Shown here piece after piece: positions 46,823 to 54,277 of a stretch of 64,000 bases of DNA (the first letter of the stretch is position 1; each line of letters starts with the position of its first letter). The position numbers were made by a program, and so were the translations under genes. Below the pieces are notes generated by a model. That model was not told where the DNA came from and made no database searches. It worked only from the letters and a program-made list of their open reading frames with translations. The DNA is from Chloroflexota bacterium (GTDB lineage: Bacteria > Chloroflexota > Anaerolineae > Anaerolineales > Anaerolineaceae), in contig JAAYZW010000016.1 of NCBI GenBank assembly GCA_012514645.1, positions 17,498 through 81,497 of the forward strand, in the 5' to 3' direction.

Positions 46823-47329
46823 TCAGATCATGGCTTCAATAATTCCGCTAAAACTGATCCAGCTATTTATTTCCAGAAATTGAATCAATATAGTCAGCAA
46901 AATAATAAAGGCAAGAAGGATGATCAAGACAAACAGAATGGAAAGTTTGCGCACCTCCTTCAACCGTATTGATAATAAATATGCAACGGCAGCAGTAATA
47001 TTAACCTTTCGATTTCTGACATTAATTATCGGCAGGTCGTCCTGGAGGATAATAAATTTGACTGTATGCATAACTTGAACAATGGATAAAAGAATCCAGG
47101 ATAGAGTGGTTAAACCATAAAGAATGAACCTCAACTTTCCATCGACAAAAATCATTTCAGAAAATCTTAGGGTGTATTCGACTGTAAAAGACAGTGTGAT
47201 TCCGACCAAGATTATGAATAAGTTTTGGTTAAGAATAGAAACCATCGAAATGCTTAAACGGTCGATTCTACACAATCCTAAGAACTGATTTCGTTCACTT
47301 TCTTCTAGTAATTCTGATATCTTCCTCAC
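46823..47329 (-). CDS. small multi-TM protein of unknown function (third gene of island operon)
   Basis: about 3-4 hydrophobic segments; 12 nt downstream of the ATPase gene, same strand. Confidence 0.65.
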   Translation of the reverse strand: MRKISELLEESERNQFLGLCRIDRLSISMVSILNQNLFIILVGITLSFTVEYTLRFSEMIFVDGKLRFILYGLTTLSWILLSIVQVMHTVKFIILQDDLPIINVRNRKVNITAAVAYLLSIRLKEVRKLSILFVLIILLAFIILLTILIQFLEINSWISFSGIIEAMI

Positions 47330-47341
47330 GATGAGGTGCCC

Positions 47342-48664
47342 TTAAACATTATCCAGGAAAGCTCTGCATTCTCCAATTTTCTGCTTCCAGAGATTTATTT
47401 CCTCATCCGTAAGGTCGGACAGCAGAAAAGCGTTCAGTTCGCTTAGTTCGAGCTCATAATTCATTTTTATTTTTATTGCCTGCAAATCGCGTCTGTGGCA
47501 AGTAACAGTAGTAGAAATTCTGGAAGCAGCCTGCCCTCTTCCAAATAGAGCTACCAATTTCGAATCACAATCCTGGATCAAACTATCAATTATTGGCGCA
47601 AGATCACGTAACTCAGACAGATCAATGTTTGCGTCTGGCTTTTTAAAGAGGAAATCCTTTAGGTATGGCTGTGTTAATGTTTTATCGGTCCACGATATGA
47701 CGCCATATGAGTTTAAACTGCGAAACCCATTCTTATCTAAATTCTTCTCTCCAGAGGTTATCGCTTTTATGAATGTTTTCAGATTGCCCAACTCCCCCAG
47801 TCGTTTTAGCGCCTCACATTGATAGAAGAGAAAATCGTCGGTCTGGGGTATGCAGGTTTCTTCAATCTCTTCAATCACAGAATTCACGTCAAGTTCATTG
47901 CCATGTTCTTTAACGACATTCAGGTATGCATTACACCAAAACGCCAGACAAAACGGAGAGGTTCCGGAAAAATACCGGATCCTTCCCCAAACGTTGTCAT
48001 TTACCCTATCGTCGGACTTGACATTCAGCTTATCTCGAAATCTGTCCACATCGGCAGTGGCAAAACCCTTCAGAGGATAATGGATAAATACACCTTGAAA
48101 GACAGAACCACCTCCAACCAGGGGAAACAATTTCACTAAAGATGTCCTCGAGACAGTAAGCGCGTTGATGCTCTTCGAAGCAGAAATTAATTGCCTTAAT
48201 GTCATTAAATATTTATGGAACACATCAGGAGCGTAATCAAATTCATCAAATATCAGTAAAAACCGAATTCCTTTCTGGTCAAACATAAGCTTGCTAAGTT
48301 CGATCACTCGTTCGGCATCAATGCTATCATTTTCCAATTCACTTAGAATAATCTTAGCCTCATCAATTAATTGATTATTGTGAAGATTATTTGCAACATC
48401 TAGCATTCTTTGGAAGAGTCGGGAAAAAACTACCTTTTCTCGAGTGCTTGGTGTTAACGAAAATTCGACAACCTCGATATTACCCGAGGTTATCGATTCT
48501 GACTCACGAATCAACAGCTCCTTTATCAATGAACTTTTCCCGACACGTGATAATCCAGTTAATGAGTAATTATTGCTTCCAGAAAAGAAATTCTTAAGAT
48601 ATTGAAGTTCTTTCTCTCTACCAATAAAGTTATCACCGGTTGCAATCGGACCTGCAATGAACAT
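47342..48664 (-). CDS. ORC/STAND-like P-loop ATPase
   Basis: FIGREKEL, Walker A GLSRVGKSSLIKEL, Walker B FLLIFDEFDY, winged-helix-like tail. Confidence 0.8.
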   Translation of the reverse strand: MFIAGPIATGDNFIGREKELQYLKNFFSGSNNYSLTGLSRVGKSSLIKELLIRESESITSGNIEVVEFSLTPSTREKVVFSRLFQRMLDVANNLHNNQLIDEAKIILSELENDSIDAERVIELSKLMFDQKGIRFLLIFDEFDYAPDVFHKYLMTLRQLISASKSINALTVSRTSLVKLFPLVGGGSVFQGVFIHYPLKGFATADVDRFRDKLNVKSDDRVNDNVWGRIRYFSGTSPFCLAFWCNAYLNVVKEHGNELDVNSVIEEIEETCIPQTDDFLFYQCEALKRLGELGNLKTFIKAITSGEKNLDKNGFRSLNSYGVISWTDKTLTQPYLKDFLFKKPDANIDLSELRDLAPIIDSLIQDCDSKLVALFGRGQAASRISTTVTCHRRDLQAIKIKMNYELELSELNAFLLSDLTDEEINLWKQKIGECRAFLDNV

Positions 48665-48671
48665 AATTCCC

Positions 48672-51600
48672 TCAAATTTTCCCTAATAGATAATTTTGAT
48701 AAAGTTTTACCCGTATTTCGTATTCTTCTGAATCGTGTTTATCAATCACCCATCGCGATTCGAGGCTTTCTAAAATTCTATTAATGCGCTCCTCTGATAA
48801 ACTGGCATCGATTTCAACAGCCTCGTTAATGACATCTTTTTTTAATGCCAACCCATTTGTTCTTTCACTCGCTCTAGCAATTGCTTTTAGAATATTCTTC
48901 GCATCATCATCACTTACCGGGTCATCCCCTCTTTCACCTGACATGAACAGCGGATGAAAGAGGAGGTTGAGTGTCTCGTTGTCAGTATCGAACCATTTTT
49001 TGATGATCACTTTAACCTGGTTGGCGTTCACCTTATTTAACCTTTCATCATTCATGGAAGCTACTACTTGGAAGCATATATGCTGAATGTAAAAAGCATT
49101 GCCAGCAGTCAATTCGTAAATATACTTCACAGCATCTTGCTTAAATCGATTTCCGATTGTTTTTGAACGAATTGGGTTTTGAATAAGCCGAATAGCGCTA
49201 TCTTCTGGCAGGTAATTAAGCTGGTGGAGTGAAAAAGCGGCGAACTCATTTCGGTTTTCTCTCATTTGCTGTGTCAAAACATCGTGTCCTACTACAATCG
49301 CATCAATTGAACCAATCGACATTATTTGTTTCCAGTATTGCATAAAATTACCAGGCATGTTACCAGAAAAGATTCTGCCGAATTCATCGATTGTTACAAG
49401 CATGTGAAATGGTTTTATTTCTTCCTTCAATAGCTCCAAAAAATCACACAGGAAGTCAGCTGGTTTTAGTTTCAACATCTCATTTGATACATCATCATAT
49501 TCATTAAGCTTTTTGTGTTTTTCATCGTCAATTTTCCCCTTTGTGCTTCTACAGATTTGATGAATTAAAGAATAAACAAAATCCGATAAATTGCCGCTTT
49601 CATCGATCTCTAAGTTCGCGACAATTACATATTGATCCTTGCTTTTTATTTTAGAAATGACATAGTTTTTCAGAGAAGTTTTCCCACAACGGAATTGACC
49701 ATAAATCGCGATGGATGTCCCCTGGGAATGTCCTCGAGCCAACATGTTTGAGATTATATCTATGTCGCGCTCCCGGCCAAAAAAAATCGCATCGTCTTCA
49801 CCTGGCCTCAGTTCGCTGCCCACTTTATAGGGGATTGGGTCAATCTTGTGGTAACCATCTACGCTCTGTGTCTTGATAGTTATTACCTTGGCTTCAGTCT
49901 CTAAAATTTGGTTTTGTACGGTTTTATAAGAAACAGTAAAACTTAAATCCATGGGTGACCCGGGTGTTTTGCCTAAGTTCGTCAACCGTAGTCTCACAGG
50001 AACAATTTGGCTTTCTCCACCTGGGAGCGAAAACTCGGTGTATAGTGGGTTCTCATCAATGAAATAATATAGTCTTGTTTCATCATTCTGAAAGAATTTA
50101 AATGTAATATCACTGGGAGTAGTTTTTCTGTCAGCGTTACTAATGCGCAACTGAACTACGATACTGGCATCATCAGCAGGAGAATACCCTTCGTCTGCTT
50201 GATCATCAGAAACCTCGATTTCGGGCAAATGTTTCTGGATCAATTTTTCGATGTGCGATGATAAATAATTTATCAACGCATCGATTCGGGGGAGAACATC
50301 GCTAAAAGACAATGATGTAGGATTAGCCAAAATCTCAGTCCTCAATTGGTTTATTTTTTGAAGGTTTCTTTCAGCGGAGGCACGAGCTGTGTCGTAAATG
50401 TCCTCATCAAACATTTCGCATACTGCTAATAATGTGTCAGATACTTCTTCCAGGACTGTTTTATCACGGGTTCGTAAGAACGGGTTCCCCAACTTGCTTT
50501 TTAGATCCCAAACAACTGTCCTCACTTGCTCAGGGTCTTGGTTATTGATCAGGTTGTCAATAGCTTGACCTAATGAAAAAACAAGCCTTTGTTGATAAGA
50601 ATTAAAATCTCTTACAGAGTGTTCCAAGACAACATCGATCGAGCCCTTAGCCCAAGAATTGATAGGCGAGTCTGAAAAAGATTCCAAGATAGAAACGAAA
50701 TCATTGTCCAGCTTAAATTTTGAGATTAACTCGCACAAAAAAGGTTTAAGGTACTCCGACACATCACCTGCGTCTGAAAGCACCTGAACAAACGCTTTGC
50801 TGAGTAGATATGGAGAAGTTGGGGAGAGGTTCCAAGCTTTTCTAAAATTGGTAACTGTTTTCGTAGAAAGATCATTCTTTCTTTTATTATTGAACTGCTC
50901 ATAACTTTCAGATTTGTCGTTCTCTATCTTCGATCTCCAGAATATCATGCTGCTATTATTACCAAGCTCTTTGCTCACAGAGAATAATACATAGGCGTTA
51001 AATGCAGTATAAAACTCCGGAACATTTAAGAATAAGTTTTCCTTACTTTCATCCAACGAAATTGTTTGCATTCTCGCTAATAGAATTATGCACTCACTGA
51101 AAATCATACGAAGAAAATCAACTTCAACGGCAGCTCCCTTCATAATGCTCCTTGCCTTTGCAATAAGCATTTTAGCGGAATGAGTAAAAAAATATTTACT
51201 CGCAACTTTAATCTGATCTTCATTCGCATCTTCCGAGCTTAGACAATATTGTGCCAGCCAGGCAATCGTAAGGTTCCTGTGCGAAACAGCTTTTTGATCT
51301 CCTTGAGCATCTGTCATGTAAGTTTCTTTGGCACGGGCAATCTGCCGAGATTTTGCTAATGCCTCCTTAGCGCTCCCAGGATCGTAGTAATTTTTCCCAT
51401 CTTTCCCCACAGTAACATCCCTAATACCAATAAATTCACATTCATCCAAGAGATGCTTCAAATACTTAGTGGTAAACTCAGCCACAGAAAAAGCTGTCAG
51501 ATCTGGAATATAATTTTCAGCCTCAAGTTGGGTATCTAATTGAATAGTAGATTCCTCTGGGTTGAGTCTGCCCTGTTTGACACTCTCAATTGTCGCTCTA

Positions 51601-53504
51601 ACATCCGCAATACCAACACTGTTAGGCAACCTTGCTATATATTCTGCAAAGAAATTTTCAGCTGATTCTACATCGCCGATGTTTAAATAAGAATAAATCA
51701 GAGTAGGGTACGCCGCTCCAACTGTAGGTGAAATAATGGGATACTCAGTAACTTTACGAGCAAAAAGTATCGCGTTATGAAAATCTCGCTTTTTGTAATA
51801 ACACCAGGCAATGCTATTAATGTTGATCACGTTGGGCGATATTTTTTGAATATAATTAATACTCGCTATTGCCTGGTCATACCTCTCTGTTTTGACAAAA
51901 ATCGGAATGCACATGCGCACAAACGGGATTCTTTCTTCCCCTGAGAAAATTTTGTCATATTCTTCGATAATACTAAGAGCATCACCAACATGTTCAGACA
52001 TAAACTTCCTGCCATATATTTCGAGAATATCTTTTACAGCAGTGAGCTGTTTAGGGTGTTTAGCATTTTTAGCAATCGAAATTAGACCTTCAATTACCTG
52101 CAGACATTCTTTTGTCGTAGTAGCTTTTACTTTACTCCTTTGTAAGCTGGCATAGTCATTGTTCTGTCGACTATATAAGAGCGTTTTTTGATTATTTGCG
52201 GGGTCTACTGGATAATTTTGTGAGGCGGGAGACCTTAGAGTAATTTTGGAATCAAACAAGAGTCTCTTGTTGTTTAGTGTTAATACTACTTCACGTTGAG
52301 CTAAGAACTTATCGATAAATGATTGATATTCTTGTTGTGTAAATTCATGCGATTTAAATTCAGCTATCTTAGCTTCCATGGTTTCGCTATCAACCAAGAG
52401 GTTGAAATAGTCGCCGGCATGTAGTGAACTTCCATCCGATCTGTCAAATCCAAAGACATCCAGGTCATCAGTAATTAAATGATAACTTTTTCCGGTCTTT
52501 GTAACATGAATATAAGCAAATCCTTGGATCGCGATTTTAGAGAAGGCAGCTTCAAGCGCCTTTAATAGCTCCTCTTTAGTGTGGTTAGATTCTTGTTGGA
52601 AACCAGCAAATTCTAAAGCCATTTTGGGATTGATAGTCTTCAAGAGAGCGTAAAAGATTCCATTAATGGACGAGATTGTGGCGGGTTTTGACGATTGGCT
52701 TACATCTCTTATTAACTTCAAAATCCCGAACTTCTCACGAGCAGATCGAAAACCGCTACATATAATATAAATAAGTACTTCGGGCTTAAAAATATAATGT
52801 TTCCACAACTTTAGTGCGTCTGGAATAGAACCATCCATCGCCAGTGCCATTTCAGAAATTTCCACATTATACCTGTTCGTAGTAGCGATTCCATCCGTGA
52901 ATAACGATGCCTGATTGGAACTTTCAGCACTCCGAATTCTACAAAGAAATGTGTAAATTAATAAGACCTCTTTGGGGGCTTTATTTTGATGGTACAGCTC
53001 GAGAATTTTTCTTGCATGTGGCTGGAGTCGTCCGAATTTGTCATCCGTCTCGTGCATATTCTGGGCATAATTAATCGCCTGCAACATTTGCAGCAACTCA
53101 GTGTGTGTCCGCGGATCTATCTTTTCTTTCAGGTCCATAACCAAGGAGCTTGCAGAATTAAAATCAAAGGAGGAGTAAGACGAAAAAACGGACGACTCTT
53201 TTTCCATTCTTTCGTACCATGCCTGAAGTGAATGCTCTGGATTATTGTTTTCGGGTTCAGCTGGTTTCTGAACAGGGTTTCCACTATCACCCGAAAGCGC
53301 AGAGCCTTTTTCAGATGCCTGAGCGAGTTCTATTGTTTCAATGCCTTTGGTTGTGATAAAAACCGGTCGATCGTTTCCTTCCACAATCAATACCAAAGCG
53401 GTGGAGGTAATTTGGTCAATTTTTCCAATTCGCTCAACACCAGAAGCTAAAACTTTAACAGTGTCTCCGATGTTATAGTAAGAAGAGATATCGATAGCAG
53501 ACAT
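48672..53504 (-). CDS. 1610-aa multidomain protein: SH3/KOW-like N-terminus, TPR-like helical region, Ig-like beta domain, C-terminal ORC/STAND-like ATPase
   Basis: GDTVKVLASGVERIGKIDQI; YDQAIASINYIQKISPNVININSIAWCYYKKRDFHNAILFARKV; RPGEDDAIFFGRERDIDII, Walker A IYGQFRCGKTSLKNYV, Walker B MLVTIDEFGRIF. Confidence 0.78.
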   Translation of the reverse strand: MSAIDISSYYNIGDTVKVLASGVERIGKIDQITSTALVLIVEGNDRPVFITTKGIETIELAQASEKGSALSGDSGNPVQKPAEPENNNPEHSLQAWYERMEKESSVFSSYSSFDFNSASSLVMDLKEKIDPRTHTELLQMLQAINYAQNMHETDDKFGRLQPHARKILELYHQNKAPKEVLLIYTFLCRIRSAESSNQASLFTDGIATTNRYNVEISEMALAMDGSIPDALKLWKHYIFKPEVLIYIICSGFRSAREKFGILKLIRDVSQSSKPATISSINGIFYALLKTINPKMALEFAGFQQESNHTKEELLKALEAAFSKIAIQGFAYIHVTKTGKSYHLITDDLDVFGFDRSDGSSLHAGDYFNLLVDSETMEAKIAEFKSHEFTQQEYQSFIDKFLAQREVVLTLNNKRLLFDSKITLRSPASQNYPVDPANNQKTLLYSRQNNDYASLQRSKVKATTTKECLQVIEGLISIAKNAKHPKQLTAVKDILEIYGRKFMSEHVGDALSIIEEYDKIFSGEERIPFVRMCIPIFVKTERYDQAIASINYIQKISPNVININSIAWCYYKKRDFHNAILFARKVTEYPIISPTVGAAYPTLIYSYLNIGDVESAENFFAEYIARLPNSVGIADVRATIESVKQGRLNPEESTIQLDTQLEAENYIPDLTAFSVAEFTTKYLKHLLDECEFIGIRDVTVGKDGKNYYDPGSAKEALAKSRQIARAKETYMTDAQGDQKAVSHRNLTIAWLAQYCLSSEDANEDQIKVASKYFFTHSAKMLIAKARSIMKGAAVEVDFLRMIFSECIILLARMQTISLDESKENLFLNVPEFYTAFNAYVLFSVSKELGNNSSMIFWRSKIENDKSESYEQFNNKRKNDLSTKTVTNFRKAWNLSPTSPYLLSKAFVQVLSDAGDVSEYLKPFLCELISKFKLDNDFVSILESFSDSPINSWAKGSIDVVLEHSVRDFNSYQQRLVFSLGQAIDNLINNQDPEQVRTVVWDLKSKLGNPFLRTRDKTVLEEVSDTLLAVCEMFDEDIYDTARASAERNLQKINQLRTEILANPTSLSFSDVLPRIDALINYLSSHIEKLIQKHLPEIEVSDDQADEGYSPADDASIVVQLRISNADRKTTPSDITFKFFQNDETRLYYFIDENPLYTEFSLPGGESQIVPVRLRLTNLGKTPGSPMDLSFTVSYKTVQNQILETEAKVITIKTQSVDGYHKIDPIPYKVGSELRPGEDDAIFFGRERDIDIISNMLARGHSQGTSIAIYGQFRCGKTSLKNYVISKIKSKDQYVIVANLEIDESGNLSDFVYSLIHQICRSTKGKIDDEKHKKLNEYDDVSNEMLKLKPADFLCDFLELLKEEIKPFHMLVTIDEFGRIFSGNMPGNFMQYWKQIMSIGSIDAIVVGHDVLTQQMRENRNEFAAFSLHQLNYLPEDSAIRLIQNPIRSKTIGNRFKQDAVKYIYELTAGNAFYIQHICFQVVASMNDERLNKVNANQVKVIIKKWFDTDNETLNLLFHPLFMSGERGDDPVSDDDAKNILKAIARASERTNGLALKKDVINEAVEIDASLSEERINRILESLESRWVIDKHDSEEYEIRVKLYQNYLLGKI

Positions 53505-54119: not shown

Positions 54120-54165
54120 TTTATCCGTGCTGTCTGAAGCTGTTTATCCGTGCTGTCTGAAGCTG
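54120..54165. repeat. perfect 23-bp tandem duplication (2 units)
   Basis: TTTATCCGTGCTGTCTGAAGCTG x2. Confidence 0.9.
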
Positions 54166-54202
54166 TTTTTTTTCAAATTCTCCTCGTTGAGAGGGGGCAA
54201 AG

Positions 54203-54277
<75 letters not shown>

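What the first reader, a model, noticed from the sequence alone, without database searches (positions are those of the whole stretch)
46823..53504. Three-gene operon with two distinct ORC/STAND-like ATPases plus a small membrane protein: candidate undescribed defence/conflict system
Seen: three minus-strand genes with 7-nt and 12-nt gaps, more AT-rich by eye than their neighbours (birA, histidine kinase, FGE lipoprotein), encoding (1) a 1610-aa multidomain ATPase, (2) a 440-aa ATPase with FIGREKEL / GLSRVGKSSL / FLLIFDEFD, and (3) a ~168-aa multi-TM protein. Both ATPases have the F(F/I)GRE entry motif before Walker A. Established: GRE-type STAND/ORC-like NTPases with TPR repeats and TM effectors are common in bacterial immune systems (Avs-type and others). 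Inference: the large protein is sensor/scaffold, the small ATPase a partner, and the TM protein a possible membrane-damaging effector. Adjacent transposase debris suggests an accessory locus. Function is unproven.
Basis: partly seen in the sequence, partly recalled or inferred. Interest (0 to 1): 0.78.

Follow-up and report, generated by a model that had tools for sequence, protein, structure and literature searches.

The report
Two-ATPase immune-type operon, swapped effector
A three-gene cassette inserted beside a tRNA gene belongs to a widespread but apparently unnamed bacterial two-protein alarm system whose large part starts with a predicted RNA-binding domain; most relatives carry an RNA-cutting toxin domain, but here that domain is missing and a small membrane protein stands in its place.

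Summary
In detail: three tightly spaced minus-strand genes (168, 440 and 1610 aa), 38-40% GC against about 46-55% around, both ATPases with FxGRE, Walker A and Walker B. Both are STAND/ORC-type NTPases. Of 28 congeners only one has a relative. In another congener the syntenic site is empty, beside a tRNA-Val.

The two ATPase genes are a conserved unit: of 42 homologous loci from many phyla and one archaeon, 38 have the small ATPase gene directly after the large one. Large matches large and small matches small at 20-29% identity. In about 32 loci the small ATPase ends in a Swt1-type HEPN domain with an RNx3H motif. The window lacks it and has a TM gene instead. A Bacteroidales locus shows the same swap with an unrelated TM protein. 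Two Actinomadura loci lack HEPN and have EACC1 plus caspase-like genes next door.

The large protein begins with a confidently modelled Hfq/Sm-like fold, followed by TPR-like helices and a degenerate cold-shock-like region.

Best reading: RNA- or infection-sensing large STAND, small STAND relay, swappable killer effector. Defence is inferred. No PADLOC or NCBIfam system model fits. New variant; this exact trio seen once.

The parts
48672..53504 (-). Large STAND/ORC-like NTPase, 1610 aa (proposed sensor)
   Evidence: ORF; ATPase_2 9.6e-9; co-linear homologues
53319..53504 (-). Hfq/Sm-like domain, residues 1-62 of the large protein
   Evidence: AF2 pLDDT 82-91, one helix and five strands; Foldseek top hits nearly all Hfq; relative L090 weakly matches SM-ATX/LSM in Pfam
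52380..52520 (-). Degenerate cold-shock/OB-like region, about residues 329-375
   Evidence: aligned with Pfam CSD of relatives (11 of 19 match CSD; alignments); strands at low confidence; not detected by Pfam in the window protein itself
52539..53162 (-). TPR-like helical repeats, about residues 115-322; further helical repeats follow to about residue 1000
   Evidence: helix pairs in AF2 model; TPR models match 16 of 19 relatives, only weakly the window protein
48675..49799 (-). STAND NTPase with C-terminal helical/winged region, residues 1236-1610
47342..48664 (-). Small STAND/ORC-like NTPase, 440 aa (proposed relay)
   Evidence: AF2 residues 10-300 mostly pLDDT 80-94; Foldseek 2qen, ORC1/Cdc6; small-to-small homology over residues 5-340
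47345..47629 (-). C-terminal helical extension (residues 346-440) where relatives carry HEPN_Swt1; no HEPN detectable
   Evidence: hhalign against 8 HEPN domains probability 0.15%; no RNx3H motif
46823..47329 (-). Multi-TM protein, 168 aa (proposed membrane effector)
   Evidence: three strong TM segments; no family match; no relative in 248 other genomes of the class
54202..54277 (-). tRNA-Val (CAC), right border of the variable site

Best explanation
The locus is a TM-effector variant of a horizontally moving two-ATPase conflict (probably anti-phage) system. Proposed mechanism: the large STAND protein stays off until its N-terminal RNA-binding-type region (Hfq/Sm-like plus cold-shock-like OB) and helical repeats meet an infection-derived ligand, perhaps RNA. 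It then assembles through its STAND domain and recruits the small ORC/STAND ATPase. The activated small ATPase switches on the effector. In most relatives this is a C-terminal HEPN RNase on the small ATPase itself; here it would be the separate 168-aa membrane protein, which would depolarise or breach the membrane and stop the infected cell. Shown: gene order, conserved ATPase pair, domain content, absence of HEPN, empty site. Inferred: ligand, assembly, membrane damage, defence.
For: Pair conserved in 38 of 42 loci across many phyla, junctions -38 to +21 nt. Large hits large, small hits small, cross hits marginal. HEPN_Swt1 on small relatives with RNx3H in about 32 loci, absent here. Parallel HEPN-less loci: L086 with TM ORF overlapping the small gene by 4 nt; L079 and L087 with caspase and EACC1 genes next door. 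Patchy: 1 of 28 congeners, few full-length hits among 298 class genomes, 1 of 396 in the phylum of L086. Empty site in G025, 580 bp in place of 7.5 kb, beside tRNA-Val. AT-rich. Hfq-like N-terminus; CSD in relatives.
Against: No functional data. Nearby known defence genes are sparse, with a few cases such as type I-E cas1 and a CRISPR array near L057. The TM protein has no detectable relatives and is not homologous to the L086 TM protein (z 0.4), so its effector role rests on position only. The window proteins are very diverged (22-29% identity, long branch). The CSD is not detected in the window protein by Pfam. The L086 contig ends inside its TM ORF.
Confidence: 0.6

Rival explanations
1. 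A regulatory or stress-signalling device, not immunity: the paired ATPases sense RNA or stress and remodel RNA or membranes.
For: Other adjacent large/small GRE-NTPase pairs in Anaerolineae have the small one fused to a Ser/Thr kinase or a Trans_reg_C winged helix; weak defence neighbourhood; Hfq and CSD domains are common in ordinary RNA regulation (general knowledge).
Against: Very patchy distribution across phyla, insertion beside a tRNA, HEPN and caspase/EACC1 outputs are conflict-type effectors (PMC3710099, PMC7159879).
Confidence: 0.22
2. Two-gene ATPase system as proposed, but the TM protein is a membrane receptor, anchor or unrelated cargo gene rather than the effector; the 95-aa C-terminal extension of the small ATPase or the ATPases themselves act.
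For: TM gene is an orphan; the small protein has a helical extension of unknown fold.
Against: 12-nt spacing in the same operon; an independent HEPN-less locus also has a TM ORF directly after the small ATPase.
Confidence: 0.25
3. A decaying copy: HEPN was lost, the system is inactive and the TM gene is leftover.
For: Small genes are broken in several relatives (L066, L070, L075, L085); transposon debris nearby.
Against: All three ORFs are intact, with complete Walker motifs.
Confidence: 0.1

Closest known systems
Swt1-HEPN fused to STAND-ATPase, TPR, S1 (one table entry: Npun_F6454, MED222_16016, Desac_1927; PMC3710099)
   Same: STAND ATPase, TPR and an OB-type RNA-binding domain linked with a Swt1-type HEPN; resembles the HEPN-bearing relatives
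   Different: Listed as domain fusions without a two-gene system or mechanism; the named proteins were not compared here. The window lacks HEPN and has a TM gene.
Avs (AVAST) STAND immune proteins
   Same: STAND NTPase with repeat-rich sensor-type region
   Different: Avs carry effector, STAND and sensor on one protein in N-to-C order (general knowledge); here the STAND is C-terminal and a second STAND gene is involved; no Avs model hit
EACC1-caspase two-gene conflict system (PMC7159879, System 4)
   Same: Adjacent, on the opposite strand, to HEPN-less pairs in two Actinomadura loci
   Different: Not present in the window; no ATPase pair in its definition
ORC1/Cdc6 and archaeal ATPase 2qen
   Same: Fold of the small ATPase
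   Different: Accessory, no replication context; TM-scores modest (about 0.4-0.5)
Hfq
   Same: Fold of residues 1-60 of the large protein
   Different: Fused to a 1600-aa STAND protein; E-values only 0.03-0.13, the matched domain being small

Membership tests
STAND/ORC-like P-loop NTPases | Walker A, Walker B (hhhhDE) and GRE entry motif in an ORC-like AAA+ fold | tested here: met
Two-gene Sm-CSD-TPR-STAND + STAND(-HEPN) family defined here | Large and small STAND genes adjacent, same order and strand, each homologous to its counterpart | tested here: met
Two-gene Sm-CSD-TPR-STAND + STAND(-HEPN) family defined here | HEPN_Swt1 domain with RNx3H on the small ATPase | tested here: not met
   absent in the window; so filed as a variant, not as a HEPN system
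Two-gene Sm-CSD-TPR-STAND + STAND(-HEPN) family defined here | Hfq/Sm-like N-terminus of the large protein | tested here: met
   fold prediction only
Two-gene Sm-CSD-TPR-STAND + STAND(-HEPN) family defined here | Cold-shock OB domain of the large protein | tested here: inconclusive
   aligned but degenerate; low model confidence
Avs (AVAST) | Match to Avs models | tested here: not met
   no PADLOC hit for the large protein at E<=1
Any system in PADLOC-DB 2.0.0 | Significant model match | tested here: not met
   best are PDC-S01 0.0066 and mad8 0.04, NTPase part only
Anti-phage defence | Protects cells from phage | not testable with these tools
   needs experiment

The most novel reading that the evidence does not exclude
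A prokaryotic RNA-sensing, NLR-like two-ATPase immune relay: an Hfq/cold-shock-headed STAND sensor activates a second, ORC-like STAND relay whose effector slot is interchangeable between a HEPN RNase, membrane proteins and perhaps EACC1-caspase modules.
Probability: 0.35. Interest if true: 0.82.

Novelty: new variant of a known kind. Interest (0 to 1): 0.6.

Why it matters
If true, it adds a widespread immune-type system whose sensor has an Hfq/Sm plus cold-shock head, pointing to RNA sensing, and a second dedicated ATPase as relay. Effector exchange at the relay would give a clean handle for testing how STAND signals reach different killers. The common HEPN version makes this directly testable in laboratory hosts.

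Tried and rejected
Single-sequence pattern scans of genome and viral contigs found nothing; the profile worked for genomes but not viral contigs. No hit in plasmid or phage records. Chance adjacency of two ATPases rejected. A degenerate HEPN in the small protein: no support. Homology between the window and L086 TM proteins: no support. The L077 6-TM neighbour as effector rejected: it matches GT87, although the L077 HEPN motif is lost. Universal housekeeping locus rejected. A tRNA-derived direct repeat (att site) at the far border was sought and not found in the window. Comparison with one Mutator transposase did not recover the debris; only a weak Pfam match did. Literature searches found no description of the pair beyond the table entry in PMC3710099 (one search was uninformative).

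Full report
Observation. The three genes exist at the stated coordinates with 12- and 7-nt gaps. The block is clearly more AT-rich than its surroundings, also at third codon positions: 0.37-0.40 against 0.47-0.65 in nine other window genes. Both ATPases carry FxGRE, Walker A and Walker B, and the 168-aa protein has three strong hydrophobic segments. Pfam places the large C-terminus in ATPase_2 and the small protein, just below cut-off, in AAA_16/ATPase_2; PADLOC and NCBIfam give only weak, non-specific matches.

Site. The genome is a fragmented MAG of 2.03 Mb, but the flanks are syntenic with congeners, which speaks against a misplaced contig. In G025 the gyrA-birA-histidine kinase block (74% DNA identity) is followed after about 580 bp by tRNA-Val and then the FGE-like and prohibitin-like genes; the window has 7.5 kb there. 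In other congeners the tRNA-Val/kinase interval holds different genes, and three contigs begin at the tRNA. This is a variable site next to a tRNA. Of 28 congeners only G028 has relatives of the pair, on another contig than its birA gene and beside a Mutator transposase gene.

Family. With an alignment of the window and five relatives, 42 loci were found in Poribacteria, Latescibacterota, Chloroflexota, Cyanobacteria, Bacteroidota, Bacillota, Actinomycetota, Spirochaetota, Thermodesulfobacteriota, Acidobacteriota, Pseudomonadota and a Theionarchaeon. In 38 of them a small ATPase gene follows directly (L101 is weak and not counted, L098 is weak but counted), with junctions of -38 to +21 nt in 31 measured loci. 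By BLAST the window large protein matches the large ones at about 22-29% identity, the small one matches the small ones over residues 5-340, and cross matches are marginal. So two distinct ATPases have travelled together for a long time. The neighbours differ between loci and only a few look like known defence genes; a type I-E cas1 with a nine-repeat array lies 6-8 kb from the pair in L057.

Effector slot. Typical small relatives are about 500 aa and end in HEPN_Swt1 with R-N-x3-H, of the HEPN motif type Rx4-6H (PMC3710099). By my count about 32 loci keep it, a few of them in split genes; two have lost the motif (L064, L077). The window small protein has instead a 95-aa helical extension without detectable relation to HEPN (hhalign 0.15%), and the TM gene follows. 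In L086 (Bacteroidales), whose large protein is 42-44% identical end to end to HEPN-type ones, the small protein stops at 389 aa and a TM ORF overlaps it by 4 nt; that contig ends inside the ORF. The two TM proteins are not detectably related. Two Actinomadura loci have short small ATPases without HEPN and, on the opposite strand, caspase-domain and EACC1 genes, the parts of a published conflict system (PMC7159879). The pattern suggests that the output module is exchanged while the ATPase pair is kept; for the Actinomadura loci, mere neighbourhood is not excluded.

Sensor. Residues 1-60 of the window large protein are modelled at pLDDT 82-91 as one helix and five strands, and Foldseek returns almost only Hfq (E 0.03-0.13, target TM mostly 0.6-0.76). 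L090 shows weak independent SM-ATX/LSM matches. Cold-shock domains are called in 11 of 19 relatives; in the window the aligned segment is degenerate and poorly modelled. TPR models match 16 of 19 relatives. An RNA ligand is therefore plausible but inferred.

Mechanism and doubts. I favour: ligand binding by the large protein, STAND-driven assembly, activation of the small ATPase, release of the effector; here the TM protein. Shown are gene order, homology, domains, the missing HEPN and the site; inferred are ligand, assembly, membrane damage and defence. The strongest rival is a regulatory role, since other large/small GRE-NTPase pairs in the same order have kinase or DNA-binding outputs on the small partner.

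Novelty. One table line in PMC3710099 lists Swt1-HEPN with STAND, TPR and S1; no paper found describes the pair or its effector exchange, within an open-licence library only. PADLOC-DB is of 2023, so newer names may exist.

Noticed in passing
L018, L020, L023, L022, L025, L021: Other adjacent large/small GRE-NTPase pairs in Anaerolineae whose small partner ends in a Ser/Thr kinase, a Trans_reg_C winged helix or a CHAT domain; a wider class of paired STAND systems.
   Followed up: partly
L057:13090-14975: Type I-E cas1 and a nine-repeat CRISPR array 6-8 kb from the HEPN-type pair in an Ardenticatena genome.
   Followed up: partly
L066, L070, L075, L085: Small (HEPN-bearing) gene frameshifted, split or partly deleted while the large gene region remains; could be loss of a costly effector or MAG sequence errors.
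   Followed up: no
L095:6533-11488: Distant large relative with beta-propeller/FG-GAP and HEAT repeats before the STAND domain and no small partner.
   Followed up: no
G356 (Theionarchaea), near L098: Two divergent large-protein copies about 6 kb apart on opposite strands.
   Followed up: no
window 54120-54165: Perfect tandem duplication of 23 bp just outside the tRNA-Val 3' end.
   Followed up: no
L106:5714-5931: tRNA-Val 3' part duplicated beside the intact tRNA in the empty-site congener, perhaps a scar of earlier insertions.
   Followed up: partly
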